Both the position numbers and the translations under genes were made by a program. Source: Bosea sp. Tri-49 (GTDB lineage: Bacteria > Pseudomonadota > Alphaproteobacteria > Rhizobiales > Beijerinckiaceae). From it: a DNA stretch of 64,000 bases. The DNA lies in NCBI RefSeq assembly GCF_003952665.1, contig NZ_CP017946.1, positions 5,475,001 through 5,539,000 on the forward strand. The letters are read 5' to 3'. Positions 44,979-59,444 of this stretch are shown in pieces. Each line of letters opens with the position of its first letter. Positions within the stretch are counted from its first letter, which is position 1. The notes under the pieces were generated by a model. The model worked only from the letters and a program-made list of their open reading frames with translations, was not told where the DNA came from and did no database searches.

Positions 44979-45899
44979 ATGCGCGTAGACGTTCTCGGGC
45001 TGCAGGCCTTCGTCAGCATCGCCGAGCGCGGCAGCTTCCGGGCGGCCGCCTCGCATCTCAACCTGTCGCAGACGGCGCTCAGCCATCGCATCCGCAAGCT
45101 GGAGGAGTCGCTGGGAACGCCGCTCTTCCTGCGCACCACACGACAGGTCTCGCTGACCGCAGCCGGCACGACGCTGCTGCCGCGGGCGCGGCGCATCTTC
45201 GAAGATCTCGGCTTCGCCATCAACGAGGTCAAGGTCGAGCTGCGCGAGGGCGACGAGCAGGTCTCGCTCGGTTGCCTGCCGACGGTGGCGGCGCATTGCA
45301 TGCCGGCGGTGATCGCCGCTTTCGCCGCGCGCCATCCCGGCGTCGGCGTCAGAATTCACGATAACTCGGCTTCCGAGATCGCCGATAAGGTCCAGTCCAG
45401 CGAGGCGGAATTCGGTGTCACCATCGTTGCCGCCAATCGCTGGGACCTCGAGCTCAAGCCCGTCGTCAAGGAGCCCTTCGTGCTGGTCAGCCATCGTTCG
45501 ATGCCGCTGGCGCAAGCGACCTTTCTGACCTGGGCCCAATTGCAGGACGAGCCGCTGGTGCGGATCAGCGCCGAGACCGGCAACCGCATCCTGATCGACG
45601 ATGCGCTCGGCGCCCGCCGGGAGACATTGACCTGGCGCTACGAGGTCCAGCGCGTCGTCACCGCTGTCAGCCTGGTGCGCTCGCGCATCGGTTACGCGGT
45701 GGTGCCGCAGCTTTCGCTCGATGTCGTCGATGCCGGTGAGCTCGTCGCCATTCCCTTGCGCTCGCCGGCTGTGACCCGCACGCTCGGCATCATCACGCGC
45801 AAATCGGTGCCGTTGCGCCCGGTGACGCGGGATCTGATCGCGCTATTGAGCCAAGCATTGAAGCGCAGCGTCGTGCCGCGGCGAGATGAAGAAAAGTAA
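44979..45899 (+). CDS. LysR-family transcriptional regulator (probable gal-cluster activator)
   Basis: 306 aa. N-terminal winged HTH at residues about 4-62: LQAFVSIAERGSFRAAASHL, LSQTALSHRIRKLEESLGTP, LFLRTTRQVSLTAAG. The C-terminal co-inducer domain has LGCLPTVAAHCMPAVIAAFA and a final hinge region. It precedes the DUF1932/tctC/galD-galB-galC genes on the same strand, and a LysR-type dyad with T-N11-A lies between. In Pseudomonas the gallate cluster is also governed by a LysR activator (GalR). That it responds to gallate or an oxalomesaconate-pathway compound here is inference. Confidence 0.92.
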   Translation: MRVDVLGLQAFVSIAERGSFRAAASHLNLSQTALSHRIRKLEESLGTPLFLRTTRQVSLTAAGTTLLPRARRIFEDLGFAINEVKVELREGDEQVSLGCLPTVAAHCMPAVIAAFAARHPGVGVRIHDNSASEIADKVQSSEAEFGVTIVAANRWDLELKPVVKEPFVLVSHRSMPLAQATFLTWAQLQDEPLVRISAETGNRILIDDALGARRETLTWRYEVQRVVTAVSLVRSRIGYAVVPQLSLDVVDAGELVAIPLRSPAVTRTLGIITRKSVPLRPVTRDLIALLSQALKRSVVPRRDEEK

Positions 45900-45985: not shown

Positions 45986-46819
45986 ATGGCAGGCGCCAAC
46001 ACGGTAGCGATCGCCTTCATCGGCTTCGGCGAGGTCGGCCAGACCTTCTCGCGCGGCCTGCTGGCCAATGAGGGCGTCGCCATTCGCGCCTATGACTTGC
46101 TCTTCGGCAGCGAGGCCGGCGACCGTCTGGAAGCTGCTGCGGAGGAACTCGGCGTCGCCCGCGCTTCCTCGGCGCAGGAAGCCTGCGCGGGTGCGGCCTT
46201 CGTCTTCTCGGCCGTAACCGCCGATCGCGCCGAGGCGGTGGCGAGCGAGGCGGCCGCCTGGCTGAAGCCGGGGCAGGTCTTCGTCGACGTCAATTCCGCT
46301 GCACCTTCGACCAAACAGCGGGCTGCGCAGGCTGTGACCGCCAGCGGCGCCGGCTATGTCGAGGCTGCTGTGATGGCACCGGTGCTGAAGCCTGGCCTGA
46401 AGGTCGCGATCCTCAGCGGTGGCCCCAAGGCACAGGCCGTCTCCGAGGCGCTCAACGGGCTCGGCATGAACCTGACACCGGTCTCCGAGGTCTATGGCCG
46501 GGCCTCGGCGATGAAGCTCTGCCGCTCGATCGTGATCAAGGGGCTGGAGGCGCTGATGGTCGACTGCGCTGCCGCCTGCGAGGCCTGGGACGTCAAGGAT
46601 CCGGTCTTCGCCAGCCTGCACGCGACTTTCCCATCGATCGATTTCCATGCGCTTGCCGCCGACATGCGCGAGCGCGTCGCGACCCATGGCGTGCGCCGCT
46701 CGGCCGAGATGCGCGAGGCAGCCGAGATGCTCGGCGTCGCCAATCTCCACCCCGGCCTGGCCCAGGCAGTCGCCGACGCCCAGCTGCGCGGGGCTCGCCG
46801 CAAGGAGGGCGCCCGGTGA
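45986..46819 (+). CDS. NAD(P)-dependent oxidoreductase, 6-phosphogluconate-dehydrogenase-like with DUF1932 domain
   Basis: 277 aa. N-terminal Rossmann domain with IAFIGFGEVGQTFSRGLLA (GxGxxG) and VDVNSAAPSTKQRAA. The C-terminal DUF1932 helical domain has the conserved Lys in GRASAMKLCRSIVIKGLEAL; the usual Asn three residues on is not obvious. The beta-hydroxyacid dehydrogenase superfamily oxidises 3-hydroxy acids. GGAGAGG precedes ATG 45986. First gene of the gal-type operon, overlapping the receptor gene (TGATG). The known gallate pathway needs no dehydrogenase, so it may supply or remove a side-product; substrate unknown. Confidence 0.88.
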   Translation: MAGANTVAIAFIGFGEVGQTFSRGLLANEGVAIRAYDLLFGSEAGDRLEAAAEELGVARASSAQEACAGAAFVFSAVTADRAEAVASEAAAWLKPGQVFVDVNSAAPSTKQRAAQAVTASGAGYVEAAVMAPVLKPGLKVAILSGGPKAQAVSEALNGLGMNLTPVSEVYGRASAMKLCRSIVIKGLEALMVDCAAACEAWDVKDPVFASLHATFPSIDFHALAADMRERVATHGVRRSAEMREAAEMLGVANLHPGLAQAVADAQLRGARRKEGAR

Positions 46820-47802
46820 TGCTGGATCGCCGCTCCGTCCTCGCCGGCTTCGGGCTCGCCGGTTTCGCCGGGCTGGGGCCGGTACGCGCTCAGCCGGAGT
46901 GGCCGAGCCAGCTGATCCGGATCGTCGTGCCGTTCACGCCCGGCGGCAGCACCGATGTGCTGGCGCGGTTGATCGCCAGCAAGCTCGAGCGGAGCATTCC
47001 GGGCAAGGGCTTCGTGATCGAGAACCGCCCGGGCGCCGGCGGCATGACCGCCTCAGGGCAGGTCGCCAAGTCCGAGCCCGACGGCCACACGCTGATGATG
47101 GGCCATATCGGCACGCTGGCCTTCGCGCCCTCACTCTACCCGAATGTGCCCTATGACCCGGTCAAGGATTTCCAGCCGGTCGCGCTCGTCGCCATGCTGC
47201 CGAACATCCTGGCGATCAATCCGAAGCTGCCAGCCAAGACCCTCGGCGAGTTCATCGCCTACGCCAAGGCAAACCCCGGCAAGCTGAACTATTCGTCCGG
47301 CGGGCAAGGCAGCGCCGCCCATATTGCCACCGCCTATTTCTGCCATCGCGCCGGCATCGAAGCGACGCATGTGCCCTATCGCGGCACGGCGCCGTCGGTG
47401 AACGATCTCGTCGCCGGCAACATCCAGTTCACGCTGACGGGCGGGCCAGCCGTGCTGCCGCTGGCGGAGGGCGGGCAGCTCCGGGTGCTCGGCGTCGCGG
47501 CGCGCGAGCGTGTCGGCTTCGCGCCCGATCTGCCGACCCTGTCCGAGAGCGGCCTGCCGGATTTCGAGGCAGTGCAATGGTACGGGATCGTGGCGCCGGC
47601 GCGCACGCCGTCACGAATCGTCGAACGGCTCAATCGCGAGATCAATGCGCTGCTCGGTCAGCCGGACTTCGCCGCGGCCCTCTCCAAAGACGGCGCCATC
47701 GCCCGGCCGGAGACGCCGGAGGGTTTCGGCAAGCTGATCGGCTCGGAACTCGTGCTCTGGCGCGATGTCATTACCCGTGCCGGCATCAAGGCAGCGGAGT
47801 AA
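46819..47802 (+). CDS. tripartite tricarboxylate (TctC/Bug) family substrate-binding protein
   Basis: 327 aa periplasmic receptor. N-terminus LDRRSVLAGFGLAGFAG is a twin-arginine-like signal with cleavage near VRAQ. Bug family core: WPSQLIRIVVPFTPGGSTDV, VIENRPGAGGMTASGQVAKS, EPDGHTLMMGHIGTLA, LNYSSGGQGSAAHIA, HVPYRGTAPSVNDLVAGNI. Such proteins bind carboxylates. ATG 46819 overlaps the preceding stop (GTG 46816 is an alternative start). No TctA or TctB membrane genes are in the window, so it is an orphan receptor here; it could serve a distant TctAB pair or act as a sensor. galD follows after 3 bp. Confidence 0.92.
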   Translation: MLDRRSVLAGFGLAGFAGLGPVRAQPEWPSQLIRIVVPFTPGGSTDVLARLIASKLERSIPGKGFVIENRPGAGGMTASGQVAKSEPDGHTLMMGHIGTLAFAPSLYPNVPYDPVKDFQPVALVAMLPNILAINPKLPAKTLGEFIAYAKANPGKLNYSSGGQGSAAHIATAYFCHRAGIEATHVPYRGTAPSVNDLVAGNIQFTLTGGPAVLPLAEGGQLRVLGVAARERVGFAPDLPTLSESGLPDFEAVQWYGIVAPARTPSRIVERLNREINALLGQPDFAAALSKDGAIARPETPEGFGKLIGSELVLWRDVITRAGIKAAE

Positions 47803-47805
47803 GCG

Positions 47806-48888
47806 ATGGGCCAGCTCGCCATCCCCTGCATGCTGATCCGCGGCGGCACCTCCAAAGGCGCCTATTTCCTGCGCGACGACCTGCCGGCTGATATCGCTGC
47901 GCGCGACGCTTTCCTGCTGGCGGTGATGGGCTCGCCCGACAAGCGCCAAGTCGACGGGCTCGGCGGTGCCCATCCACTGACCAGCAAGGTCGCGGTCGTC
48001 TCGCCTTCGAACGAGCCCGGCTGCGATATCGACTTCCTGTTTGCACAGGTCGGCGTCGAGACGGCTTCGGTCGATACGACGCCGAACTGCGGCAACATCC
48101 TCGCCGGGATCGGGCCGTTCGCGCTGGCGCGTGGTCTGGTGAAGGCGAGCGGGCCGCGCACCACGGTGCGGGTCCGGACGATCAACACCGGAACGATCGC
48201 CGATCTCACTATGGATACGCCGGACGGTGAGGCGAGTGCCGAGGGGACTGCGCGCATCGATGGCGTGCCGGGAACCTCGGCGCCGATCGATATCGGCTTC
48301 CTCGATGCCGAGGGCTCGGTCTGTGGCACGCTCTTGCCGACCGGCAATGTCGTCGATGTGATCGACGGGGTGCCCTGCACGCTGATCGACAACGGCATGC
48401 CGGTGATCGTGCTACGCGCCGCCGATGTCGGGCGCACCGGCTACGAGCCGCGCGACCAGCTCAATGAGGATGCCGAACTCAAGGCCCGGATCGAGGCCAT
48501 CCGTCTCGCGGCCGGCCCGCTGATGAATCTCGGTGATGTCGCGAAGAAGGTCGTGCCGAAAATCGCGCTGGTCGCGCCGCCGCAGGCCGGCGGGGCGATC
48601 TCGACCCGCAGCTTCATCCCGCATGAGTGCCATGCTTCGATCGGCGTCTTCGCCGCTGTGACCGTCGCGACCGCCGCCGTGCTGCCGGGCTCGCCTGCGG
48701 CTTCTGTCGTTGTGATGCCGCAGGGACGCGAGCGGACGCTTTCGGTGGAGCACCCGACCGGCGAGTTCACGGTGACCTTGACGGTCGGCGGGACTGCCGA
48801 GCAGCCGGTGGTCGAGCGGGCCGGGCTGCTGCGCACCGCCCGCATCCTGATGACAGGGCAGGCCTTCGTGCCGGCCGGTAGATTGTGA
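47806..48888 (+). CDS. galD: 4-oxalomesaconate tautomerase (PrpF family)
   Basis: 360 aa PrpF-type isomerase. Family patterns: IPCMLIRGGTSKGAYFLRDD at the N-terminus, TPNCGNILAGIGPFALARGL with the conserved Cys, PIDIGFLDAEGSVCGTLLPT, and SFIPHECHASIGVFAAVT. With galB and galC directly downstream, it fits GalD, which converts the keto and enol forms of 4-oxalomesaconate in gallate/protocatechuate 4,5-cleavage breakdown. AGCGGAG lies upstream of ATG 47806. Alternative: another PrpF/methylitaconate-type isomerase, made unlikely by the neighbours. Confidence 0.88.
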   Translation: MGQLAIPCMLIRGGTSKGAYFLRDDLPADIAARDAFLLAVMGSPDKRQVDGLGGAHPLTSKVAVVSPSNEPGCDIDFLFAQVGVETASVDTTPNCGNILAGIGPFALARGLVKASGPRTTVRVRTINTGTIADLTMDTPDGEASAEGTARIDGVPGTSAPIDIGFLDAEGSVCGTLLPTGNVVDVIDGVPCTLIDNGMPVIVLRAADVGRTGYEPRDQLNEDAELKARIEAIRLAAGPLMNLGDVAKKVVPKIALVAPPQAGGAISTRSFIPHECHASIGVFAAVTVATAAVLPGSPAASVVVMPQGRERTLSVEHPTGEFTVTLTVGGTAEQPVVERAGLLRTARILMTGQAFVPAGRL

Positions 48889-48904
48889 GAGAGGAGCGCA
48901 CGCG

Positions 48905-49627
48905 ATGAGCGCCCAGAAGACAGGCCTGGTCATCACCGCCCATCCCGGCGACTTCGTCTGGCGGGCCGGTGGCGCCATCGCCCTGCACGCCAAACGCGAC
49001 ATGCGCGTCAAGATCCTCTGCCTGTCCTATGGCGAGCGCGGCGAAAGCCAGTTCGCCTGGAAGAAGGCGGGCGTGCAGATGGCTGAGGTCAAGGCCCAGC
49101 GCCGCGAGGAGGCCGAGGCTGCAGCCACGTTGCTGGGCGCCGAGATCGAGTTCATGGATGCCGGCGACTATCCGTTGCGCACCACCGAGCCGATGCTTGA
49201 GCGCGCCATCGACATCTTCCACGAACTCAACCCGAGCTTCGTGCTGACCCATGCGCTCGAAGACCCCTATAATGTCGACCATCCGGAGGCGACGCGCTTT
49301 GCCCAGGAGGCGCGCATCATCGCACAGGCGGCCGGCCACAAGCCCGATCCCAGCCGAGCCTATGCCGCACCGCCGGTCTTCCTGTTCGAGCCGCACCAGC
49401 CCGAGCAGTGCAATTTCAAGCCGAACGTGATCCTCAACATCGACGAGGTCTGGGAGGTAAAGCGCAAGGCGTTCGAGATCCTCGCCGCGCAGAAGCATCT
49501 CTGGGAGTACTACACCCGCGTCGCGCTTAATCGCGGCATGCAGGGCGGCCGCAACTCCGGCAAGGCGATGACCTATGGCGAGGCCTATCAGCGCCTCTTC
49601 CCGGAAGCGCTGGAGGCGCTGGCATGA
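48905..49627 (+). CDS. galB: 4-oxalomesaconate hydratase (PIG-L-like)
   Basis: 240 aa zinc protein of the PIG-L deacetylase fold. N-terminus [20 protein letters not shown] is the characteristic GalB start; zinc ligands by pattern are His13 and Asp16 (HPGD instead of HPDD) with His126 in NVDHPEAT. The SYGERGES segment follows, where GalB also has GERGES. It adds water to 4-oxalomesaconate, giving 4-carboxy-4-hydroxy-2-oxoadipate. GAGGAG precedes the ATG. It overlaps galC by four bases and follows galD by 16 bp. The context makes hydratase rather than deacetylase the better call. Confidence 0.9.
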
Positions 49628-50313
49628 ACCCCGTCGTCATCCGCACCAGCAAACGCGCTCCCGCTGCAGCGATGGCCGATCTCGCCGCGCTCGGCGTCTC
49701 GACCACGCATGAGGCGATGGGCCGGAGCGGCCTGCTGAAGCCCTATATGCGGCCGATCTATGCCGGCGGCCAGATCGCCGGCGGGGCGGTAACGGTGCTG
49801 GCTCAGCCCGGCGACAACTGGATGATCCATGTCGCGATCGAGCAGGTGCAGCCGGGCGACGTGCTCGTCGTCGCCTGCACCACCGACAACACCGACGGCA
49901 TGTTCGGTGACCTGCTCGCGACCTCGCTCAAGGCGCGCGGCGGCATCGGCCTCGTCATCGATGCCGGGGTGCGCGATGTGCGCACGTTGACCGAGATGGG
50001 CTTTCCGGTCTGGTCGCGGGCGATCTCGGCCAAGGGCACGGTCAAGGCGACGCTCGGATCGGTCAACGTGCCGGTGGTCTGTGCCGGGGCGCTCGTCCAT
50101 CCCGGCGACGTGATCGTCGCCGACGATGACGGCGTCGTGGTCGTGCCGCGGCGCGACGCCGAGGCGGTCGCTGCCGCTGGCCGCAAGCGCGAGGCCAATG
50201 AAGACGAAAAGCGTAGACGCCTGGCCGCTGGCGAACTCGGGCTGGACATGTACGCTATGCGCGACGGCCTCGCGAAGGCGGGCCTTACCTATCGCGACGA
50301 CGAAGACGAATAA
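49624..50313 (+). CDS. galC: 4-carboxy-4-hydroxy-2-oxoadipate aldolase
   Basis: 229 aa RraA-fold aldolase (class II, divalent metal). The signature G-D-x20-R-D is exact: Gly95-Asp96, then Arg117-Asp118 in [12 protein letters not shown]. It splits 4-carboxy-4-hydroxy-2-oxoadipate into pyruvate and oxaloacetate and often decarboxylates oxaloacetate too. The C-terminal [20 protein letters not shown] is a charged helix. It overlaps galB (ATGA). Last enzyme of the lower pathway; an ABC receptor gene starts 51 bp downstream. Confidence 0.93.
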
Positions 50314-50364
50314 TCCAACGAAAGCCCCGCAAAGGGGATCGCAACAACACTCGGGAGGAACGAC

Positions 50365-51537
50365 ATGACCAATCGCAGGACGGTTCTCAGTGGAATGCTC
50401 GGCCTCGCCCTGGCCGCCTCGGTCAGCGGCGCGGCTTTGGCGCAGGATGCGGTCAAGATCGGCCTGATCCTGCCGATGACCGGCCCCTTCGCCTCGACCG
50501 GACGGCAGATCGCCGCAGCCGCCAATCTCTACATCCAGGAGAAGGGTGCGACCGTCGCCGGCAAGAAGGTCGAGCTCATCGTCAAGGACGACACCGGTAC
50601 CGCCGACGTCACCCGCCGTATCGCACAGGAGCTGATCGTCAACGACAAGGTCACCGCGATCGCCGGCTTCGGCCTGACGCCGCTCGCGCTCGCCACCGCC
50701 CCGCTGGCGACGCAGGCGAAGACGCCGATGGTGGTGATGGCGGCCGCGACCGCGATCATCACCGAGCGCTCGCCCTTCGTCGTGCGCACCAGCCAGGTCG
50801 TGCCGCAGATCGGCGCGCCGTTCGGCACCTGGATCGCCAAGCAGGGGACGAAGCGCGTCATCACCATCGTTTCCGACTTCGGCCCGGGCCATGACGTCGA
50901 GAATTCGTTCTCAGAGGCGTTCAAGGCCGGCGGCGGCCAGGTCGAGAACATCCGCGTGCCCCTGCAGAACCCCGATTTCTCGCCTTTCCTGCAGCGTGTC
51001 GCCGATGCCAAGCCGGAGGCGTTGCTGGTCTTCGTGCCGTCCGGCGTCGGCGCCCAGTTCATGAAGCAGTTCGTCGAGCGCGGCCTCGACAAGAGCGGCA
51101 TCAAGCTGATCGGCACCGGCGACCTGACCGATGACGACATCCTCAACGGCATGGGCGACGTCGCGCTCGGCGTCATCACCGCCCAGCACTATTCGGCCTC
51201 GCATGACAGCCCGGAGAACAAGGCCTTCGTCGAGGGCTTCAAGAAGGCCAATCCGGGCATGCGTCCGAATTTCATGGCGGTCGGCGGCTATGACGGCATG
51301 CACGCGCTCTATGAGGGCCTGAAGAAGACCAAGGGCGAGGGCGGCGAGGCGCTGGTCACCGCGATGAAGGGGATGAGCTGGACAAGCCCCCGCGGGCCGA
51401 TCTCGATCGATCCGGAGACGCGCGACATCATCCAGAACGTCTATATCCGCAAGGTCGAGCGCGTGAACGGCGAGCTCTGGAATCAGGAGTTCGAGACGAT
51501 CCCGAACGTCAAGGACCCGACCAAGGCCAAGAAGTAA
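50365..51537 (+). CDS. branched-chain amino-acid-type ABC transporter substrate-binding protein (gal-linked)
   Basis: 390 aa periplasmic receptor. The N-terminus NRRTVLSGMLGLALAASVSG is a twin-arginine-like signal, cleaved near LAQD. Family opening VKIGLILPMTGPFASTGRQI, ELIVNDKVTAIAGFGLTPLA, and YDGMHALYEGLKKTKGEGGE. GGGAGGAA precedes ATG 50365. It belongs with LivH, M, G and F directly downstream and follows the gal lower-pathway genes by 51 bp, so an aromatic acid is a likely ligand (inference). Unlike the other binding-protein genes it is followed after only 21 bp by the permease. Confidence 0.92.
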   Translation: MTNRRTVLSGMLGLALAASVSGAALAQDAVKIGLILPMTGPFASTGRQIAAAANLYIQEKGATVAGKKVELIVKDDTGTADVTRRIAQELIVNDKVTAIAGFGLTPLALATAPLATQAKTPMVVMAAATAIITERSPFVVRTSQVVPQIGAPFGTWIAKQGTKRVITIVSDFGPGHDVENSFSEAFKAGGGQVENIRVPLQNPDFSPFLQRVADAKPEALLVFVPSGVGAQFMKQFVERGLDKSGIKLIGTGDLTDDDILNGMGDVALGVITAQHYSASHDSPENKAFVEGFKKANPGMRPNFMAVGGYDGMHALYEGLKKTKGEGGEALVTAMKGMSWTSPRGPISIDPETRDIIQNVYIRKVERVNGELWNQEFETIPNVKDPTKAKK

Positions 51538-51558
51538 GCCGGCCGGGGCGGGGCCGAC

Positions 51559-52416
51559 GTGCTCACCATCCTGTTCGACGGCGTCGCCTACGGCATGATC
51601 CTGTTCGTGCTGGCTTGCGGGCTGTCCGTGACCATGGGGTTGATGAACTTCATCAACCTCGCCCACGGCGCCTTCGCCATGTTCGGCGGCTATGTCACCG
51701 TGCTGGCGATGCAGCGGCTCGGCCTGCCGTTCCTGTGGGCGCTCCCGGCGGCCTTCTTCGCCGCCGGGCTCGCAGGGCTGGTGCTGGAGCGGCTGGTCTA
51801 TCGGCCGATGTACGCCAGGGGCCATCTCGACCAGGTGATGTTCTCGATCGGACTGGTGTTCATGTCGGTTGCCGGCGCCGACTACCTGATGGGTTCGACC
51901 CAGCAATTCGTGCAGCTGCCGGTCTGGCTGAGTGGGCGCTTCGATGTCGCGGGGATCGGCGTCGGCCGCTACCGGCTCTTCATCATCCTGCTCTGCGGCG
52001 CGCTTGCTTTCGCGATGCAATGGGGCTTCACCCGCACCCGCTTCGGCAGCCGGCTGCGCGCTGCCGTCGACGATGCCCGGGTGGCACGCGGGCTCGGCAT
52101 CCCCGTCAACCGGTTGTTCGCGCTGACCTTCGCCTTCGGCTCGGGGCTTGCCGGCCTTGGCGGCGCGCTCGGCATCGAATTGATGGGGCTCGATCCGACC
52201 TTCCCGCTGAAGTTCATGATCTACTTCCTGATCGTGGTGACAGTCGGCGGCACCTCGACCATCTCCGGCCCGTTCTTCGCGGCGATGCTGCTCGGGGTCG
52301 CCGATGTTGCCGGTAAGTACCTCGTGCCGCAGCTCGGCGCCTTCATCATCTACGCGCTGATGGTCGTCCTGCTGATCACCCGGCCGCACGGCCTCTTCGC
52401 CAGGGGCCGGGCATGA
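51559..52416 (+). CDS. branched-chain-type ABC transporter permease (LivH type, gal-linked)
   Basis: 285 aa inner-membrane permease: LFDGVAYGMILFVLACGLSV, MGLMNFINLAHGAFAMFGGY, RLRAAVDDARVARGLGIPVN coupling loop, VTVGGTSTISGPFFAAMLLG. The start is GTG 51559, with a G-rich but poor ribosome site, so coupling to the upstream receptor gene is likely. Overlaps LivM by four bases. Confidence 0.92.
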   Translation: MLTILFDGVAYGMILFVLACGLSVTMGLMNFINLAHGAFAMFGGYVTVLAMQRLGLPFLWALPAAFFAAGLAGLVLERLVYRPMYARGHLDQVMFSIGLVFMSVAGADYLMGSTQQFVQLPVWLSGRFDVAGIGVGRYRLFIILLCGALAFAMQWGFTRTRFGSRLRAAVDDARVARGLGIPVNRLFALTFAFGSGLAGLGGALGIELMGLDPTFPLKFMIYFLIVVTVGGTSTISGPFFAAMLLGVADVAGKYLVPQLGAFIIYALMVVLLITRPHGLFARGRA

Positions 52417-53420
52417 GTGCCGGCAGCATCGAGGCCCGCGTCCGGCGCTCGCTCTATGGCGCGCGCCGCTGGCATCCGGCCGAGATCACGTTCTGGGTCC
52501 TGGCGTTGGCGGTCTTCTTCCTGCTGCCGCGCCAGCTGCTGATCCTCAACGAGATCGCGATCCTCGGGCTCTTTGCCGTCTCGCTCGACCTGATCCTCGG
52601 CTATGCCGGCATCGTCTCGCTCGGGCATGCCGCCTTCTTCGGCTTCGGCGCCTATGCCGCCGGGCTCTTCGCCAAGCATGCCAGCGCTGATCCGCTCGCG
52701 GGCCTCGCGGTCGGGATGGGAGCGGCTGGACTACTCGGCCTGCTCACCAGCCCGCTGATCCTGCGCGGCAGCGACCTGACACGGCTGATGGTGACGCTCG
52801 GTGTCGCGCTGATCCTGGGGGAGCTGGCGAATTCGCTCGGCGGCATCACCGGCGGCGCCGACGGCCTGCAGGGCATCACGATGGGGCCGGTGCTCGGGCT
52901 GTTCGAGTTCGATATCTTCGGCAAGGTCGCCTATCTCTATTCGCTCGCTGTGCTCTTCGTGCTGTTCGTGCTGGCACGGCGCATCGTGAGCTCGCCCTTC
53001 GGCCTGTCGCTGCGGGCGATCCGCGACAACTCCCTGCGCGCCTCGGCCTCCGGCGTGCCGCTGCACTGGCGGCTGGTCGCGGTCTACACATTGGCGGCCG
53101 CCTATGCCGGCGCGGCCGGAGCTCTGCTCGCCCAGACCACGCAGTTCGTCTCGCTCGACGTGCTCGCCTTCCACCGCTCGGCCGATCTGATGCTGGTGCT
53201 GATCATCGGCGGTGCCGGCTATCTCTATGGCGGTCTGATCGGCGCGGTTGCCTTCAAGCTGCTGCAGGACGTGATTGCGAGCTTCACGCCGCAATATTGG
53301 ATGTTCTGGATCGGGCTGTTCCTGGTGCTGTTCGTGCTCGGCGGGCGCGAACTGATCCATGGCGGGATCAAGGCGGTGGCTGTCCGGATTGGCCATCTTG
53401 TCCGGAGATCGCCGACATGA
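52413..53420 (+). CDS. branched-chain-type ABC transporter permease (LivM type, gal-linked)
   Basis: 335 aa inner-membrane permease with a 35-residue cytoplasmic start (VRRSLYGARRWHPAEITF). Core patterns: FAVSLDLILGYAGIVSLGHA, FFGFGAYAAGLFAKH, GITGGADGLQGITMG, LRAIRDNSLRASASGVPLHW coupling loop, and IIGGAGYLYGGLIGAVAF. Overlaps both neighbours by four bases. Confidence 0.93.
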   Translation: MSAGSIEARVRRSLYGARRWHPAEITFWVLALAVFFLLPRQLLILNEIAILGLFAVSLDLILGYAGIVSLGHAAFFGFGAYAAGLFAKHASADPLAGLAVGMGAAGLLGLLTSPLILRGSDLTRLMVTLGVALILGELANSLGGITGGADGLQGITMGPVLGLFEFDIFGKVAYLYSLAVLFVLFVLARRIVSSPFGLSLRAIRDNSLRASASGVPLHWRLVAVYTLAAAYAGAAGALLAQTTQFVSLDVLAFHRSADLMLVLIIGGAGYLYGGLIGAVAFKLLQDVIASFTPQYWMFWIGLFLVLFVLGGRELIHGGIKAVAVRIGHLVRRSPT

Positions 53421-54169
53421 GGGTGGCGCTCCAGACCTTCGACCTCTGCAAAAGCTTCGGCGGCATCACTGCCACCGACCATGTCGATTTCACGCTGCAG
53501 AAGGGCGCGCGCCACGCGCTGATCGGCCCGAACGGCGCCGGCAAGACCACCTTCGTCAACCAGCTCACCGGCGTGCTGCGCCCGAGCTCCGGCCGAGTCG
53601 AGCTCCTGGGCGAGGACATCACCACGCTATCGCGCGAGACTCGGGTCGGGCGCGGGCTGGCGCGCACCTTCCAGATCAACCAGCTTTTCGCGACGATGAC
53701 GCCGGTCGAGATGATCGCGCTGGTGACCTCCGAGCGGCTCGGCCGCGGCCGCCAGCCTCTGCGGGCGCTCGACAAGGACAAGGAACTCGTCGCCGAGACC
53801 GCGGAGATCCTTGCCCGCTTCAGGCTCGACGACATCATGGACGAGCGCATCGCGACCTTGCCCTATGGCAAGCAGCGGCAGATCGAGATCGCCGCTGCCT
53901 TCGCGGCCAAGCCGAGCGTGCTGCTGCTCGACGAGCCGGCGGCGGGCGTGCCCGAGGCCGAGCGGCGCGACTTGATGGCGATGGTCGCCGGTTTGCCCGA
54001 GGATGTCTCGGTGCTGCTGATCGAACACGACATGGACCTCGTTTTCCGCTTCGCGACGCGGATCACCGTGCTGGTCAACGGCCGCCTGCTCGCCGATGGA
54101 ACACCCAGCGAGATCGCCAATGATCCGGCCGTCCGCGCCGCTTATCTTGGGGAGCATGGCCATGGCTGA
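53417..54169 (+). CDS. branched-chain-type ABC transporter ATP-binding protein (LivG type, gal-linked)
   Basis: 250 aa ATPase: Walker A GPNGAGKTT at residues 37-45, LARTFQINQLFATMTPVEM, signature region LPYGKQRQIEIAAAF, Walker B SVLLLDEPAAGVPEAE, H-loop IEHDMDLVF. ATG 53417 overlaps the LivM stop; a longer upstream frame is inside livM. Overlaps LivF by 8 bp. Confidence 0.93.
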   Translation: MRVALQTFDLCKSFGGITATDHVDFTLQKGARHALIGPNGAGKTTFVNQLTGVLRPSSGRVELLGEDITTLSRETRVGRGLARTFQINQLFATMTPVEMIALVTSERLGRGRQPLRALDKDKELVAETAEILARFRLDDIMDERIATLPYGKQRQIEIAAAFAAKPSVLLLDEPAAGVPEAERRDLMAMVAGLPEDVSVLLIEHDMDLVFRFATRITVLVNGRLLADGTPSEIANDPAVRAAYLGEHGHG

Positions 54170-54869
54170 ACTCCTCAAAGTCGAACGCCTCAGCGCCGGC
54201 TATGGCGAGGCCCGGGTGCTGTTCGACATCGATCTATCGCTCGCCGAGGGGCGCTCGCTGGCGCTGCTCGGCCGCAACGGCGTCGGCAAGACGACTTTGG
54301 TCAACAGCATCATCGGCGTCACCCACCGGCGTGGCGGCAGAATCGTGCTCTCAGGGCGCGACCTCACCACAGCCTCGCCCGAACAGCGCGCTCATGCCGG
54401 CATCGGCTGGGTGCCGCAGGAGCGCAACATCTTCAAATCGCTGACCGTGCTGGAGAACCTGACCGCAGTGGCGACGCCGGGCGCCTGGACGACCGAGCGC
54501 GTCTTTGCGATGTTCCCGCGTCTTGCCGAGCGCAAGGCCAATCTCGGCAACCAGCTCTCCGGCGGCGAGCAGCAGATGCTGGCGATCGGCCGGGCGCTGA
54601 TGCTCAACCCGAAACTGCTGTTGCTCGACGAGCCGACCGAGGGCCTCGCGCCGATCATCGTTGAGGAATTGCTACGCGCCCTGAAGCGGCTCGTCCGAGA
54701 GGAGGGGCTCTCGGCGATCGTGATCGAGCAGCACGCCCGCAAGATCCTCGAACTCACCGACGAGGCGATCGTGCTTGAGCGCGGCCGCGTCGTCCTTGCC
54801 GCCGGGAGTGCCGAACTCCTCGCCGACCCGTCACGGCTGGAGCGCCATCTCGGCCTCGCAGCCGCCTGA
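54162..54869 (+). CDS. branched-chain-type ABC transporter ATP-binding protein (LivF type, gal-linked)
   Basis: 235 aa ATPase: Walker A GRNGVGKTT at residues 37-45, GWVPQERNIFKSLTVLENL, signature LSGGEQQMLAIGRAL, Walker B KLLLLDEPTEGLAPII, IEQHARKIL. ATG 54162 has GGGGAG at better distance than the ATG at 54156, which remains possible. Completes the third Liv-type importer of the window. Confidence 0.93.
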   Translation: MAELLKVERLSAGYGEARVLFDIDLSLAEGRSLALLGRNGVGKTTLVNSIIGVTHRRGGRIVLSGRDLTTASPEQRAHAGIGWVPQERNIFKSLTVLENLTAVATPGAWTTERVFAMFPRLAERKANLGNQLSGGEQQMLAIGRALMLNPKLLLLDEPTEGLAPIIVEELLRALKRLVREEGLSAIVIEQHARKILELTDEAIVLERGRVVLAAGSAELLADPSRLERHLGLAAA

Positions 54870-54900
54870 GCCAACGACAGAACCGAGGAAAGGAAACGCC

Positions 54901-56010
54901 ATGAGCCAGAGACAGAAGCCGCCGTTCCGGGGCGACATGGTCGGCAGCCTGCTGCGCAGCGCGCCGGTCAAGGACGCCCGCGCCAAGCACGTGGCCGGTG
55001 AAATCGGCCAGGCCGAGCTGACGGCGATCGAGGACGAGGAGATCAGGAAGCTTGTCCGCAAGCAGGAAGACGTCGGCCTGCAGGCGGTGACCGATGGCGA
55101 GTTCCGTCGCGCCTTCTGGCATTTCGACTTCCTCGACGGCCTTTCCGGCGTCACCAGCTTCGAGACCGATTCAGGCATCCAGTTCAAGGGCGTCACCACC
55201 AAGGGCCATGCAGTCCGCGTCACCGGCAAGCTCGACTTTCCGGACGATCACCCGCATCTCGCCCATTTCAAGTTCCTGGCCTCGACGACCAGCCGCGTGC
55301 CGAAGATGACGATCCCGAGCCCGTCCATGCTGCATTACCGCGGCGGCCGGAAGGCGATCGATCCAAGCGCCTATCTTCGGATCGAGGACTATTACGAGGA
55401 TCTCAGCAAGGTCTACGCCAAGGCGATCAAGGCCTTCTACGATGCCGGCTGCCGCTATCTCCAGCTCGACGACACCAGCCTATCCTATTTCTGCGATCCT
55501 GAGCAGCGCAAGATGCTGGCCGAGCGCGGCGACGACCCGGAGCAGCTGGTCTTCATCTATCGCGACGTGCTTAACGCGGCGCTCAAGGCCAAGCCGGCCG
55601 ACATGCAGATCACAACCCACACCTGCCGCGGCAATTTCAAGTCGACCTTCATCGCCTCTGGCGGTTACGAGCCGGTCGCCGAAATGGTCTTCAACGAGAT
55701 CGATGTCGACGGCTATTTCATGGAGTGGGACGACGACCGCTCCGGCGGCTTCGAGCCGCTGCGCTTCCTGCCCAAGGGCGACAAGCAGGTCGTGCTCGGG
55801 TTGGTGACCTCGAAATTTGGCGAGATCGAGAGCAAGGACAACCTCAAGCGCCGCATCGAGGAAGCCTCAAAGTTCGCCCCGCTGGAGCAGCTCTGCCTGT
55901 CGCCGCAATGTGGCTTCGCCTCGACCGAGGAAGGCAATGTGCTGGCCGAGGACGAGCAATGGGCCAAGCTCTCGCGCATCCTCGAGGTCGCCAAGGAAGT
56001 CTGGGGATGA
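54901..56010 (+). CDS. MetE-like (cobalamin-independent methionine synthase C-terminal type) zinc methyltransferase family protein
   Basis: 369 aa barrel protein resembling only the catalytic C-terminal half of MetE (like YxjG/YxjH) and the epoxyalkane:CoM transferase family. Zinc ligands: His240-Thr-Cys242 in THTCRGN and Cys337 in LSPQCGFAS; RVPKMTIPSPSMLHY and YLQLDDTSLSYFCD are barrel motifs. It activates a thiol (homocysteine or other) for alkylation. GAGGAAAGG precedes ATG 54901. It overlaps the extradiol dioxygenase gene (ATGA) and follows an ABC importer, which suggests a catabolic rather than methionine-making role, for example moving a methyl group. That is speculation; a plain methionine-synthase-like enzyme is the alternative. 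Confidence 0.88.
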   Translation: MSQRQKPPFRGDMVGSLLRSAPVKDARAKHVAGEIGQAELTAIEDEEIRKLVRKQEDVGLQAVTDGEFRRAFWHFDFLDGLSGVTSFETDSGIQFKGVTTKGHAVRVTGKLDFPDDHPHLAHFKFLASTTSRVPKMTIPSPSMLHYRGGRKAIDPSAYLRIEDYYEDLSKVYAKAIKAFYDAGCRYLQLDDTSLSYFCDPEQRKMLAERGDDPEQLVFIYRDVLNAALKAKPADMQITTHTCRGNFKSTFIASGGYEPVAEMVFNEIDVDGYFMEWDDDRSGGFEPLRFLPKGDKQVVLGLVTSKFGEIESKDNLKRRIEEASKFAPLEQLCLSPQCGFASTEEGNVLAEDEQWAKLSRILEVAKEVWG

Positions 56011-56963
56011 GCGCCGAACCCTGCTTCGACATCGCCCATCTCGGCCATGTCGAGCTTTTCACCAACAAGCCGCAGGAGAGCCTCGACTTCTTCGTCGACA
56101 TCTTCGGGCTGACGGAGAGCGGGCGCGAGGGCGACAGCGTGTATCTGCGCGCCTGGGACGACTATGAGTTCCACACGCTGAAGCTCACCGCGGCCAAGAC
56201 CACGGGCGTCGGTCATATCGGCTATCGTGCCTCAAGCGAGGCGGCGCTCATGCGCCGCGTCGCGGCGATCGAGGCGATGGGCTGCGGCATCGGCTGGAGC
56301 GAGGGCGATCTCGGCCATGGCCGCGCCTATCGCTTCCGCGATCCGGACGACCACGTCTTCGAGATCTATTTCGAGACCAACAAATATGCCGCTCCTGAAA
56401 AGGAGCGGCCTGCCCTGAAGAACCAGGCGCAGCGCAACCATGGCCGCGGCTGCGCCGTGCGCCGGCTCGACCATCTCAACCTCCTGGCGCAGGACGTCGC
56501 GGCGATCCGCGACTTCATGCCGAAGGCGCTCGGTAGCCGCGTGACCGAGCAGATCGTGCTCGATTCCGGCGACGTCGGCGGCTGCTGGTTCACCGTCAAC
56601 AACAAGAGCTACGACATCGCCTATACCCGCGACCACACGCCGGCGCGCGGGCGCTTCCACCACGTCACCTATGCCGTCGACCAGCGTGAGCACATTCTGG
56701 AGGCGGCCGATCTCTTCCTGGAGAACGGTGTCTTCATCGAGACCGGGCCGCACAAGCACGCGGTGCAGCAGACCTTCTTCCTCTATGTCTACGAACCCGC
56801 CGGCAACCGCGTCGAGATCGCCAATGCCGGGGCGCGCCTGATCCTCGATCCCGATTGGCAGACGGTGACCTGGACGGAAGAGGAGCGGAAGAAGGGGCAG
56901 GCCTGGGGGCTGAAGACGATCGAGAGCTTCCACACCCACGGCACGCCGCCGGGGGGCAAGTAG
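56007..56963 (+). CDS. type I (VOC superfamily) extradiol ring-cleavage dioxygenase
   Basis: 318 aa, two VOC domains. Domain 1 (about 8-125) is non-catalytic; domain 2 (about 150-280) holds the Fe(II) set: His156 in RRLDHLNLL, His218 or His219 in GRFHHVTYAV, Glu270 in GNRVEIAN. The spacing equals that of catechol 2,3-dioxygenase. It should open a catechol-type ring next to the hydroxyls with O2. ATG 56007 overlaps the MetE-like gene by four bases. Last gene of the plus-strand run that includes galDBC; whether it makes the substrate for that pathway is untested, because gallate and protocatechuate are normally cleaved by the unrelated class III enzymes. Confidence 0.9.
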   Translation: MSAEPCFDIAHLGHVELFTNKPQESLDFFVDIFGLTESGREGDSVYLRAWDDYEFHTLKLTAAKTTGVGHIGYRASSEAALMRRVAAIEAMGCGIGWSEGDLGHGRAYRFRDPDDHVFEIYFETNKYAAPEKERPALKNQAQRNHGRGCAVRRLDHLNLLAQDVAAIRDFMPKALGSRVTEQIVLDSGDVGGCWFTVNNKSYDIAYTRDHTPARGRFHHVTYAVDQREHILEAADLFLENGVFIETGPHKHAVQQTFFLYVYEPAGNRVEIANAGARLILDPDWQTVTWTEEERKKGQAWGLKTIESFHTHGTPPGGK

Positions 56964-56991: not shown

Positions 56992-57663
56992 TCAAACCAC
57001 TTCCGAGACGATCTTGGCGATCAGTGCATTGGACAGGATGACCGGGAGGCCAGCCGCCGCCGCCTCCTGCCGGTGGCGCTCGACGAAGCCCATGCAGTCC
57101 ATCAGCAGGATACTGGCGCCACGCTCGGCGAGCGCTTCGGCGGCCTCCGCAACGGACAGTCCATCGCCGCCATAAGGCGAGGCGGCGGCATAGATCGGCG
57201 GACGGGCGAGCGGCGCCCATTTCCCGGCTTCGGAAGCGATCTGCTCGGCGAGCGGCACGATGATGCCGAGCTGCGCGTCCTGAACCAGCGCCGCAACCGT
57301 CGGAGGCAGGATGCGGTCCGGCTCGATCAGCCGTGCGCGCTCTGTCCGAAGGCTTTCGAAATGTCCGGTGCAGAGCATCAGGATCGTGCTGCAGCCGGCC
57401 GCTTCGAGCGCGGCGAGCTTGGTTTGCGCTGCACGCTCGGTGCGCTGGCGGTCGATGACGACCGAGGTTCCATCGAGCAGCTTGGTGATCAGGAGCGCGC
57501 CGCCGGGCTCGGGTGCGAAGTCACGGTCGATCTCCTCGCGCGACAGGCCATCGAGCACGCCGGCATGCAGCCGCGGCAGCTCGGCGTCGAGCACCGCATC
57601 GAGGATCGGCGTGATGTCGGCGCGCGGCGCCTGGCCGATGGTGAGGGTGCCGAGTTTGCCCAT
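56992..57663 (-). CDS. AroM family protein, probable Asp/Glu/hydantoin racemase-like fold
   Basis: 223 aa, the usual AroM length: KLGTLTIGQAPRADITPILD at the start is the AroM hallmark. Two cysteines sit in racemase-like contexts: Cys98 in LMLCTGHF and Cys190 in LLMDCMGF, spaced as in the two-cysteine Asp/Glu/hydantoin racemases. The function of AroM is not established. As last gene of IclR-HyuAB-OPT-AroM it could racemise the substrate of the hydantoinase-like enzyme (inference). GGAAGGAAAGG precedes ATG 57663; a longer frame upstream lacks resemblance. 60 bp to the OPT gene. Confidence 0.88.
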   Translation of the reverse strand: MGKLGTLTIGQAPRADITPILDAVLDAELPRLHAGVLDGLSREEIDRDFAPEPGGALLITKLLDGTSVVIDRQRTERAAQTKLAALEAAGCSTILMLCTGHFESLRTERARLIEPDRILPPTVAALVQDAQLGIIVPLAEQIASEAGKWAPLARPPIYAAASPYGGDGLSVAEAAEALAERGASILLMDCMGFVERHRQEAAAAGLPVILSNALIAKIVSEVV

Positions 57664-57722
57664 GGGCCTTTCCTTCCGCAAACGGTGAGGTCCGGGCCGT
57701 TGCCAGCCCGGACCTCCGGTGT

Positions 57723-59396
57723 TCAGCGCTTGAAAAAATTCTTCGAGACGGAGTCGAAGAAAGAGAAGATCGCGTCGCCGGCGATGACACCTGCGGCGAA
57801 GACCTCCATGTCGCCTTCGCCGGTCGTGCCGCGCAGCTTCTCCCAGACCAGCCTGCAGAGGATGCCGGCCAGCACCGCCCAACCCGCCATCGGGAAGGCG
57901 ATCAGCAGGCCGGTGGCGAAGAGCACGCCGATCTGGCGCTTCGGCCCGCCGACGAATTGCAGGATCGCGCCGGGGATCGCCCAGAGGAAGAGCTGCCAGG
58001 CGACGCCGGGCGCGACGCCGGCCTTGATCGTCGCGGCATAGACCTTGTCGACGGGCGCGACGAGGTTCTGGTCGAAATAGGACTGGTAGGAGACCAGCAC
58101 GACCGCGCCGGCGATGACGAAGGCGAACATCGCGGCGAAAAGCTGCTGGCGGCGGCCCTCGCGCTCGAAGGCGGGGTCGGCGCCGTTGCCGCGCAGCAGG
58201 TAGCCGGCCTTGAGATCGTAGCCCATATCGGCGAAGGCAGGTCCCGTCGCGGCTGAGAAGCCGACCAGCAGCGCCAGTGCCGGCATCGGGAAGCCGATGA
58301 GCATGCCGATGATCAGGGTGATCAGCGCCACGGCGAAGGCAGGGAACCAGCCCGAATGCATCGCGGCGAGGCCGACGATCAGTTCATGCACATAGGCCGC
58401 GAAGGCGGCGTAGAGCACGAACAGGATCAGCATACCGATCGACATGTCGGTCATCAGCCCGCCGACGAGCGCGATGAAGACGGCGATGACGAGATAGCCG
58501 ATCGTGCCGAGCCCGAGCGCCCGCTTCACCTCGGCATCCGAGGTGCCGGAGGCAGCCTCGGCCAGCTTCTGCGCCTCGCTGCGGCGGAAGAGCAGCAGGC
58601 CGACCTGCAGCAGGGCGACGAGCCCGGCGCCGATCATGAAGCCGTGCGGGATATAGGCGGCCATCAGGTCGCCCTTCGGAATGATGGTCTCGAAGAGCGG
58701 GCCGCCGAAGATCTGGCTGGAATAGCCGCGTAGCAGCAGGCCGATGCCGAACATGGCCAGCGCCCAGATGTTGCCGATGAAGGCGACGCCGAAGGCGGAC
58801 ATCGGGATGCTCGACATCGCGGCCGAGCCGGCGAAACCGATCCAGGCCAGCGGTACCTTGACGAAGCCAATGAGGATCGCGGTGACGAAGCCGACGCCCA
58901 TCAGCACCGCCTTGCGGCCGCCCTCGTCGCCGGCCTTGATCGCCTCGGCGGCGGCGACGCCCGGCGGCCAGGCGCCGGTCGCCGGGAAGACGCGGGAATC
59001 GAACATCCGGTAGAGCAGGTAGCCGTCGAGCAGCATGGCGAAGAAGGCGCCTGCCAGCATCGGTAGCACCAGGTCCGGCCGGCCGAGCAGCCAGGGGATG
59101 CCGACTGGCAGCAAGAGGCTGTTCGCCGCGCCGAAGGTGGCCGAGGAGATCGCGCTCTGGGCGAGGTTCTGGACATGGACCGAGCGGTAGCGCGCGAACA
59201 TCGCGAGCGGCACGCGCGCCAGCGCCATGGCGGCGAGCGCGCCGATCAGCGAGGTGTTCGCGGTGATGCCGAGCGACACCAGGAGCTGCATCCCGATGAT
59301 CGCGCCGAAGACGCAGAGAATCGCGATCAGCACCAGCGTCGCCGGCTCGAACAGGCTCGGGTGCCGCCGAGGCACCCCCTCGGTTTGGTTGGTCAT
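57723..59396 (-). CDS. OPT-family (oligopeptide/metal-siderophore-type) transporter
   Basis: 557 aa integral membrane protein with about 14 hydrophobic segments. OPT-family features: the repeated glycine-rich helices, AQSAISSATFGAANSLLLP, LIGFPMPALALLVGFSAATG, and the C-terminal MEVFAAGVIAGDAIFSFFDS. The family moves peptides, modified amino acids or metal chelates by proton symport. ATG 59396 follows an AAGGGGA site. It lies 48 bp after the HyuA-HyuB fusion and before aroM, suggesting uptake of the substrate of that enzyme. Confidence 0.9.
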   Translation of the reverse strand: MTNQTEGVPRRHPSLFEPATLVLIAILCVFGAIIGMQLLVSLGITANTSLIGALAAMALARVPLAMFARYRSVHVQNLAQSAISSATFGAANSLLLPVGIPWLLGRPDLVLPMLAGAFFAMLLDGYLLYRMFDSRVFPATGAWPPGVAAAEAIKAGDEGGRKAVLMGVGFVTAILIGFVKVPLAWIGFAGSAAMSSIPMSAFGVAFIGNIWALAMFGIGLLLRGYSSQIFGGPLFETIIPKGDLMAAYIPHGFMIGAGLVALLQVGLLLFRRSEAQKLAEAASGTSDAEVKRALGLGTIGYLVIAVFIALVGGLMTDMSIGMLILFVLYAAFAAYVHELIVGLAAMHSGWFPAFAVALITLIIGMLIGFPMPALALLVGFSAATGPAFADMGYDLKAGYLLRGNGADPAFEREGRRQQLFAAMFAFVIAGAVVLVSYQSYFDQNLVAPVDKVYAATIKAGVAPGVAWQLFLWAIPGAILQFVGGPKRQIGVLFATGLLIAFPMAGWAVLAGILCRLVWEKLRGTTGEGDMEVFAAGVIAGDAIFSFFDSVSKNFFKR

Positions 59397-59444
59397 GCCT
59401 TACGTCCCCTTATTGGCCCCAGCGGGCGTCTTTCGATCGATCAG

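What the first reader, a model, noticed from the sequence alone, without database searches (positions are those of the whole stretch)
45986..56963. Gallate-type lower pathway (galDBC) without a class III dioxygenase but with a type I extradiol enzyme and a MetE-like methyltransferase
GalD, GalB and GalC convert 4-oxalomesaconate to pyruvate and oxaloacetate, yet neither GalA/DesB nor LigAB is present. The same-strand run ends with a coupled pair: a zinc MetE-like protein and a VOC extradiol dioxygenase with intact His-His-Glu. A speculative reading is a route for a methoxylated or otherwise substituted trihydroxybenzoate, in which a methyl group is moved to a thiol and the ring is opened by a type I enzyme. 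This is the strongest candidate here for an undescribed aromatic pathway.
Basis: inference. Interest (0 to 1): 0.75.

Follow-up and report, generated by a model that had tools for sequence, protein, structure and literature searches.

The report
Catechol-type ring-opener in gallate pathway
A soil bacterium (Bosea) and many relatives appear to open the ring of gallate, a tannin and lignin breakdown product, with a catechol-type enzyme unrelated to the known gallate enzymes; a linked methyltransferase-like gene may take part, but that is unproven.

Summary
A same-strand run (45986-56963) carries galD, galB, galC, a Liv-type ABC transporter, a zinc MetE-like gene and a type I (VOC) extradiol dioxygenase gene overlapping MetE by 4 bases. 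The genome (Bosea-like) has no GalA/DesB and one distant LigB-like gene in an unrelated cluster. VOC, not MetE, is the conserved partner of galBCD: at least two of galB/C/D lie nearby in 58 of 80 loci from other genomes and in 16 of 20 plasmid loci, often as galB-VOC-galC-galD, once followed by a tannase; LigM-type demethylases are near in 21 of 80. Of 50 VOC genomes searched, 0 have GalA/DesB over its cut-off and 49 have protocatechuate 3,4-dioxygenase. Best reading: a type I gallate (perhaps 3-O-methylgallate) dioxygenase. All 97 aligned sequences have Tyr at the XylE His199 position and nearly all an extra Arg277; five 46-52% paralogues have His, no Arg277 and no gal genes nearby. MetE (18 of 80 loci) keeps its zinc and homocysteine residues and joined aromatic clusters in several lineages, but often occurs without them; methyl transfer is speculative. 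No enzyme was assayed.

The parts
44979..45899 (+). LysR-type regulator, likely regulator of the run (inference)
   Evidence: PF00126 and PF03466; 86 bases upstream of the run; a homologous LysR precedes the DUF1932/gal genes in several relatives
45986..46819 (+). NAD(P)-dependent oxidoreductase with DUF1932; step unknown
   Evidence: PF09130, PF03446; near VOC in 43 of 80 loci
46816..47802 (+). TctC-type periplasmic binding protein
   Evidence: PF03401
47806..48888 (+). GalD, 4-oxalomesaconate tautomerase
   Evidence: NF033377 516.7 bits, cut-off 440
48905..49627 (+). GalB, PIG-L type hydratase
   Evidence: PF02585; 56% identity to the annotated galB of a Pantoea piersonii plasmid
49624..50313 (+). 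GalC/LigK, 4-carboxy-4-hydroxy-2-oxoadipate aldolase
   Evidence: TIGR02798 371 bits, cut-off 304.5
50365..51537 (+). LivK-type substrate-binding protein
   Evidence: PF13458
51559..52416 (+). LivH permease
   Evidence: ORF; conserved in the Liv set of relatives; name by recalled family resemblance
52413..53420 (+). LivM permease
   Evidence: ORF; conserved in the Liv set of relatives; name by recalled family resemblance
53417..54169 (+). LivG ATPase
   Evidence: ORF; conserved in the Liv set of relatives; name by recalled family resemblance
54156..54869 (+). LivF ATPase
   Evidence: ORF; conserved in the Liv set of relatives; name by recalled family resemblance
54901..56010 (+). core MetE-like zinc methyltransferase (no folate-binding N-terminal domain)
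   Evidence: NF005085 580 bits, cut-off 313; only PF01717; Zn ligands H240, C242, E275, C337 and homocysteine residues S16, E67, D190 invariant in 58 of 58 sequences
56007..56963 (+). type I (VOC) extradiol dioxygenase, proposed gallate dioxygenase
   Evidence: TIGR03211 329.4 bits, cut-off 320.2; H156, H219, E270; Y202 in place of XylE His199; model pLDDT 83.2, best PDB fold AphC 7q2a, TM 0.89

Best explanation
The run is a gallate catabolic operon in which a type I (VOC) extradiol dioxygenase does the ring opening that GalA/DesB (LigB superfamily) does elsewhere. The Liv-type ABC transporter (and possibly TctC) imports the substrate; the VOC enzyme cleaves gallate next to its hydroxyls to 4-oxalomesaconate (or its enol form); GalD tautomerises, GalB hydrates, GalC cleaves to pyruvate and oxaloacetate. 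Shown by sequence: gene order, families, metal ligands, conserved linkage. Inferred: one transcription unit, the transporter's cargo, gallate rather than 3-O-methylgallate as substrate, and Tyr202, Gln254 and Arg277 as determinants of specificity. MetE is an accessory whose role is not settled.
For: At least 2 of galB/C/D beside VOC in 58 of 80 loci, all three in 50; 44 of 60 loci with at least 9 kb on both sides. Plasmid loci: 16 of 20 (counted; the 20 were picked by me from the hits), many in the compact order galB-VOC-galC-galD. A tannase gene follows galD on an Agrobacterium pAt plasmid from walnut (one record read out of 19 with a VOC at least 99% identical). LigM-type O-demethylase in 21 of 80 loci (at least 45% identity to the L059 protein, which passes NF047885 vanillate/3-O-methylgallate O-demethylase at 722.9 bits, cut-off 580, and matches PDB 5x1i at 623 bits); PDC hydrolase-like in 6 of 80 (PDB 4d8l 309.5 bits). 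GalA/DesB over the cut-off in 0 of 50 VOC genomes; LigB at 270-304 bits in 7 of 50, weaker hits in 10 more. PcaH in 49 of 50, own included, so protocatechuate has another route. In an even draw of 385 alphaproteobacteria, own included, 6 have VOC at 66% or more; 5 of these have GalD, 4 within about 7 kb. Five paralogues at 46-52% have no gal gene nearby and His at position 202. Clusters with LigAB plus an alpha/beta hydrolase, which resemble in make-up the MgaABC 3-O-methylgallate genes of PMC12314914 (no sequence comparison made), also keep the VOC gene (L102, L107), as expected if VOC serves the gallate branch.
Against: No activity data. The family model that fits best is catechol 2,3-dioxygenase. 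22 of 80 VOC loci show no gal gene in the stretch held, 16 of them with at least 9 kb on both sides. Four of 20 plasmid loci lack two gal genes (L105, L107, L114, L115). G410 has VOC and no GalD; G166 has VOC on one contig and gal genes with LigB and a PDC hydrolase-like gene on another. In the class draw 20 of 43 GalD genomes have neither VOC nor a LigB hit at E 1e-60, so GalD alone does not call for a known ring-opener. Tannase was seen beside VOC in one plasmid lineage only, in none of the 80 loci, and not in the own genome. Tyr in place of the catalytic His might mean unusual chemistry; Tyr202 is also in PDB 9wgj, deposited as catechol 1,2-dioxygenase, which lacks Gln254 and Arg277. The Thermus locus has 4-hydroxybenzoate 3-monooxygenase and an aldehyde dehydrogenase beside VOC, which points to protocatechuate there.
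Confidence: 0.72

Rival explanations
1. The VOC enzyme opens 3-O-methylgallate (or another methoxylated trihydroxybenzoate) rather than gallate; the product is PDC or the methyl ester CHMOD, which is hydrolysed to 4-oxalomesaconate.
For: LigM-type genes in 21 of 80 and PDC hydrolase-like in 6 of 80 VOC loci; some relative of the PDC hydrolase at E 1e-10 in 38 of 50 VOC genomes.
Against: The own genome has only a 40% PDC-hydrolase-like gene elsewhere, and six of the 50 genomes that carry the MetE-VOC run (G004, G005, G007, G008, G009, G011) have none at E 1e-10; no alpha/beta hydrolase lies in the Bosea run. LigM beside VOC fits gallate formation equally well; tannase yields gallate, not its methyl ether.
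Confidence: 0.15
2. The VOC enzyme is a protocatechuate 4,5-type or plain catechol dioxygenase; the aldehyde product is oxidised (by DUF1932 or an aldehyde dehydrogenase) before entering GalD/B/C.
For: TIGR03211 match; Thermus locus with 4-hydroxybenzoate 3-monooxygenase and aldehyde dehydrogenase, Roseibium locus with aldehyde dehydrogenase; DUF1932 near 43 of 80.
Against: 49 of 50 VOC genomes have PcaH; no aldehyde dehydrogenase in the Bosea run; catechol cleavage products do not enter GalD/B/C (recalled pathway knowledge).
Confidence: 0.1
3. The MetE-like protein is an aryl-methyl-ether:homocysteine methyltransferase that demethylates a methoxylated precursor to gallate, in place of LigM/DesA/VanAB.
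For: Zinc and homocysteine residues invariant in 58 of 58; 4-base overlap with VOC; among the 80 VOC loci MetE (18) and LigM (21) never share a locus; no LigM at E 1e-60 in the ten Bosea genomes searched, own included, and VanA in 2 of those ten (own and G003); beside PcaHG, VanAB-type, LigM, LigAB-gal or VOC-gal genes in 8 of 39 MetE loci; the gal-linked label needs 4 changes on the MetE tree.
Against: Homologues sit with Liv transporters without the searched aromatic genes (L085, L088, L121, L123, L128, L129, L134) and beside a urea-type ABC transporter on a Klebsiella plasmid. L092 has MetE and LigM in one locus (no VOC), and VanAB-type neighbours elsewhere could already demethylate. The own genome has a VanA. 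The label is only weakly clustered on the tree (36 of 500 shuffles as low). Zinc-thiolate cleavage of an aryl ether has no precedent known to me; relatives are named methionine synthases.
Confidence: 0.18
4. The MetE-like protein only supplies methionine or one-carbon balance and is a passenger of the Liv transporter module.
For: Liv genes beside MetE in 12 of 39 MetE loci; VOC-gal-Liv without MetE in L019 and L028.
Against: Linked to aromatic clusters in several parts of the tree; 4-base overlap with VOC.
Confidence: 0.45

Closest known systems
GalA / DesB gallate dioxygenase (LigB superfamily, type II extradiol)
   Same: Proposed reaction and pathway slot: gallate to 4-oxalomesaconate ahead of GalD/B/C (PMC12314914, passages and sections 12 and part of 20 seen)
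   Different: Unrelated family: VOC (PF00903), not PF02900; GalA/DesB over cut-off in 0 of 50 VOC genomes
AphC (7q2a) / catechol 2,3-dioxygenase XylE (1mpy), type I extradiol
   Same: Fold (TM 0.89 and 0.80 by query length), metal ligands, His251 and Tyr260, TIGR03211
   Different: Tyr202 replaces XylE His199; Gln254 and Arg277 differ; gal neighbours
Pseudomonas sp. NGC7 mgaABCD-galDBC syringate pathway (PMC12314914)
   Same: GalD, GalB, GalC downstream of a ring-opening enzyme
   Different: NGC7 uses LigAB-like MgaAB with the hydrolase MgaC; the gene list of that paper's survey, as seen in its methods and figure legend, holds only LigB-type ring-openers
LigM/DesA tetrahydrofolate-dependent O-demethylases
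   Same: Neighbours of the same VOC gene in 21 of 80 loci
   Different: Not found in the own genome or in the other Bosea genomes searched
Core methionine synthases MesA-MesD (PMC7857596; abstract, outline, sections 6 and 11 seen)
   Same: MetE catalytic domain without folate-binding domain; zinc and homocysteine residues kept
   Different: Falls in NF005085/PRK06520; not compared with the four families here; MesX (DUF1852) was not looked for

Membership tests
Type I (VOC) extradiol dioxygenase | VOC fold and catechol 2,3-dioxygenase family model | tested here: met
   TIGR03211 329.4 > 320.2 bits; TM 0.89 to 7q2a and 3lm4
Type I (VOC) extradiol dioxygenase | 2-His-1-carboxylate metal ligands | tested here: met
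   H156, H219, E270 in 97 of 97 aligned sequences
Type I (VOC) extradiol dioxygenase | second-sphere catalytic His (XylE His199, HPCD His200; role recalled) | tested here: not met
   Tyr202 in 97 of 97; His in five paralogues, 3lm4 and 1mpy
Gallate dioxygenase GalA/DesB | LigB domain, NF009904 over 412 bits | tested here: not met
   VOC hits only PF00903/PF13669; best own-genome place 54.7 bits
Gallate dioxygenase (function) | cleaves gallate to 4-oxalomesaconate | not testable with these tools
   needs an assay
gal lower pathway | GalD tautomerase | tested here: met
   NF033377 516.7 > 440
gal lower pathway | GalC aldolase | tested here: met
   TIGR02798 371 > 304.5
gal lower pathway | GalB hydratase (PIG-L type) | tested here: inconclusive
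   PF02585, position, and 56% identity to an annotated galB; no NCBIfam model over cut-off
Core methionine synthase | zinc ligands and homocysteine residues | tested here: met
   58 of 58
Core methionine synthase | no folate-binding N-terminal domain | tested here: met
   369 aa, only PF01717
Core methionine synthase MesD | needs MesX (DUF1852) and oxygen | not tested
   not searched
LigM/DesA O-demethylase | GCV_T-type demethylase present in the genome | tested here: not met
   no NF047885 match in the own genome at E 1e-60

The most novel reading that the evidence does not exclude
A complete alternative route for methoxylated gallates: a zinc/homocysteine MetE-like enzyme removes the aryl O-methyl group without cobalamin or folate, and a type I extradiol dioxygenase with Tyr in place of the catalytic His opens the resulting gallate directly into GalD/B/C.
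Probability: 0.14. Interest if true: 0.9.

Novelty: new variant of a known kind. Interest (0 to 1): 0.68.

Why it matters
Every gallate or 3-O-methylgallate ring-opening enzyme named in the passages and sections I read (GalA, DesB, DesZ, LigAB, MgaAB; PMC12314914, PMC3962378, PMC4250580) is of the LigB type. A second, unrelated ring-opener in rhizobia, Bosea, Paracoccaceae and some enterobacterial plasmids, annotated as catechol 2,3-dioxygenase or VOC family protein, would change how gallate and syringate use is predicted from genomes and would explain gal operons that lack galA. The Tyr in place of the catalytic His gives a direct test of what that His does in extradiol cleavage.

Tried and rejected
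Class III enzyme elsewhere in the genome: the single PF02900 gene (C2:125640) was examined and set aside; 59.4 bits on the gallate model, 64.4 bits to 1b4u, with a GntR-like regulator (by eye), an isochorismatase-type hydrolase and a Liv transporter beside it. A second GalD-like gene (C1:3463515, 507 bits) was checked as a possible second gal cluster; of the searched genes only TctC and LysR lie beside it. MetE as conserved core part: rejected, 18 of 80 loci. Tannase as general partner: rejected, one plasmid lineage, 0 of 80 loci, 7 of 50 genomes. Protocatechuate as substrate in Bosea: set aside because PcaH is present. PDB entry 9wgj, the closest solved sequence, was sought in papers; none found. 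One search found none of six terms in PMC7857596. Literature: eight searches bear on the question; no type I gallate dioxygenase was seen in their listings, but I opened only three of the papers listed there. Searches were on other points. Seen: PMC4250580 and PMC3962378 as passages; PMC12314914 as outline, passages, section 12 and part 2 of section 20; PMC7857596 as abstract, outline and sections 6 and 11; all others as search listings. Subscription papers and preprints are not covered. The first ORF choice undercounted galC; one search recounted with tblastn.

Limits of the samples. The 50-genome set is the own genome plus 49 of the 80 picked by hand (isolates preferred, several near-duplicate Bosea dropped); completeness of those 49 is not told. 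The 97 aligned sequences are not all distinct in origin: L103 has the contig length and VOC position of the contig of L047, and some plasmid records are close kin. Stop codons in tblastn pieces were written as X.
Full report
What is there. The window lies in a Bosea-like chromosome (C1 of a two-contig, 6.45 Mb genome; its MetE is 98% identical to that of Bosea lupini). From 45986 to 56963 twelve genes run in one direction with gaps of -14 to +51 bases: DUF1932 oxidoreductase, TctC, GalD, GalB, GalC, LivK, LivH, LivM, LivG, LivF, MetE-like, VOC. A LysR regulator lies 86 bases upstream. GalD and GalC pass their curated models; GalB is of the PIG-L family and 56% identical to an annotated galB.

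The missing ring-opener. GalD/B/C start from 4-oxalomesaconate, which GalA makes from gallate (PMC12314914, passages). The own genome has one LigB-family gene, which scores 59.4 bits against a cut-off of 412 for gallate dioxygenase and sits in an unrelated cluster. Of 50 genomes with the VOC gene (own plus 49 chosen by hand from the 80), 0 have GalA/DesB over the cut-off, 7 have a LigB at 270-304 bits on that model and 10 have weaker hits.

VOC and gal genes travel together. In 80 loci of named contigs (the best 80 of at least 571), tblastn finds GalB in 58, GalD in 55, GalC in 53; at least two in 58, all three in 50, none in 22. Of 60 loci with at least 9 kb on both sides, 44 have at least two and 16 have none. 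In 20 plasmid VOC loci, picked from the hits have at least two, many in the order galB-VOC-galC-galD: Agrobacterium, Rhizobium, Pararhizobium, Thioclava and another Paracoccaceae, Roseibium, Pantoea piersonii, Thermus oshimai. The four others are L105, L107, L114 and L115. In an even draw of 385 alphaproteobacteria, own included, VOC at 66% identity or more occurs in 6 genomes; 5 of these have GalD, in 4 within about 7 kb (0.7, 0.8, 2.1 and 7.1 kb) and in one on another contig, where a LigB gene lies with it; the sixth has no GalD. In that draw, of 43 GalD genomes 20 have a LigB-type hit at E 1e-60 (2 of these also VOC), 3 have VOC only, and 20 have neither.

Which substrate. Neighbours point to gallate and its methyl ethers: a tannase gene directly after galD on an Agrobacterium pAt plasmid; LigM-type O-demethylase in 21 of 80 loci, MetF-like in 8, PDC hydrolase-like in 6; Rieske-type oxygenase and VanB-family genes near VOC in Pantoea and Roseomonas. 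Roseomonas and G238, a genome of the own family, carry LigAB plus an alpha/beta hydrolase, similar in make-up to MgaABC for 3-O-methylgallate (sequences not compared with MgaABC), and still keep the VOC gene. PcaH over its cut-off is in 49 of 50 VOC genomes, own included, so protocatechuate does not need the VOC enzyme. A close PDC hydrolase is missing from the own genome (best 40%) and any relative at E 1e-10 from six genomes with the MetE-VOC run, which fits direct formation of 4-oxalomesaconate from gallate. The Thermus locus has 4-hydroxybenzoate 3-monooxygenase and an aldehyde dehydrogenase, so the substrate may differ at the edge of the family.

The enzyme. It matches catechol 2,3-dioxygenase. 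The AlphaFold model (pLDDT 83.2, residues 299-318 below 50) is closest to AphC and then XylE-like enzymes. In 97 sequences at 65% identity or more, His156, His219, Glu270, His251, Tyr260 and Gln254 are invariant, Arg277 is in at least 98.5%, and the position of XylE His199 is Tyr (Tyr202) in all; two more members of the subfamily agree (L150, L151). Five paralogues at 46-52% from the class survey have His there, lack Gln254 and Arg277, and have no gal gene in the 18-20 kb around them. PDB 9wgj has Tyr at 202 but not Gln254 or Arg277, so Tyr alone does not mark the subfamily. That His199/His200 is the acid-base residue of type I enzymes is recalled; PMC3962378 (passage) calls the matching His of BphC catalytic. 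Arg277 as carboxylate anchor is inference.

MetE. It has the MetE catalytic domain only, with zinc ligands H240, C242, E275, C337 and homocysteine residues S16, E67, D190 (mapped to T. maritima MetE and to the residue types listed in PMC7857596, section 11), invariant in 58 of 58. It is near VOC in 18 of 80 loci, never together with LigM in those 80, though L092 holds MetE and LigM without VOC. Of 39 MetE loci outside the 80 (two of them also with VOC), 12 have Liv genes beside it and 8 have aromatic genes (PcaHG, VanAB-type, LigM, LigAB-gal or VOC-gal). The gal-linked label needs 4 changes on a 58-row tree, with 31 rows unlabelled and 36 of 500 shuffles as low, so the association arose or was lost more than once. 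Other relatives have none of the searched genes; one lies beside a urea-type ABC transporter on a Klebsiella plasmid. No LigM was found in the ten Bosea genomes searched; VanA is in two of the ten, the own genome and G003. A homocysteine-dependent O-demethylase is therefore open, not shown.

Verdict. Best supported is a type I gallate dioxygenase in a gal operon: a new variant of a known pathway with a non-orthologous ring-opening step. Nothing has been assayed, and the absence of such an enzyme from print rests on eight searches of an open-access library.

Noticed in passing
G000 C1:3463515-3464537 (L084): A second GalD-type tautomerase gene (507 bits) with TctC and LysR beside it but no galB or galC found.
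   Followed up: partly
G000 C2:125640-126377 (L001, L002): Divergent LigA/LigB-like pair with a GntR-like regulator, an isochorismatase-type hydrolase and its own Liv transporter; perhaps a pyridine or related ring pathway (guess).
   Followed up: partly
window 45986-46819: DUF1932 oxidoreductase recurs beside VOC/gal genes (43 of 80 loci) with no step in gallate breakdown known to me.
   Followed up: no
L116 (Thermus oshimai plasmid): VOC, GalB, LigK and a DUF1932-like gene with aldehyde dehydrogenase and 4-hydroxybenzoate 3-monooxygenase: possibly a protocatechuate meta-cleavage variant of the same system.
   Followed up: no
L086 1531-10954 and L094: PcaIJ-PcaHG-LivKHMGF-MetE run (names of PcaI and PcaJ by eye): the MetE/Liv pair beside the protocatechuate ortho pathway.
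   Followed up: partly
window 56992-63293, minus strand: Three minus-strand genes (223, 557 and 1282 aa; the last looks like a fused hydantoinase/oxoprolinase, by eye) conserved next to the run in 5 to 7 near Bosea loci.
   Followed up: no
L109 (Klebsiella plasmid): MetE relative (57%) beside urea-type ABC transporter genes, between insertion sequences.
   Followed up: no
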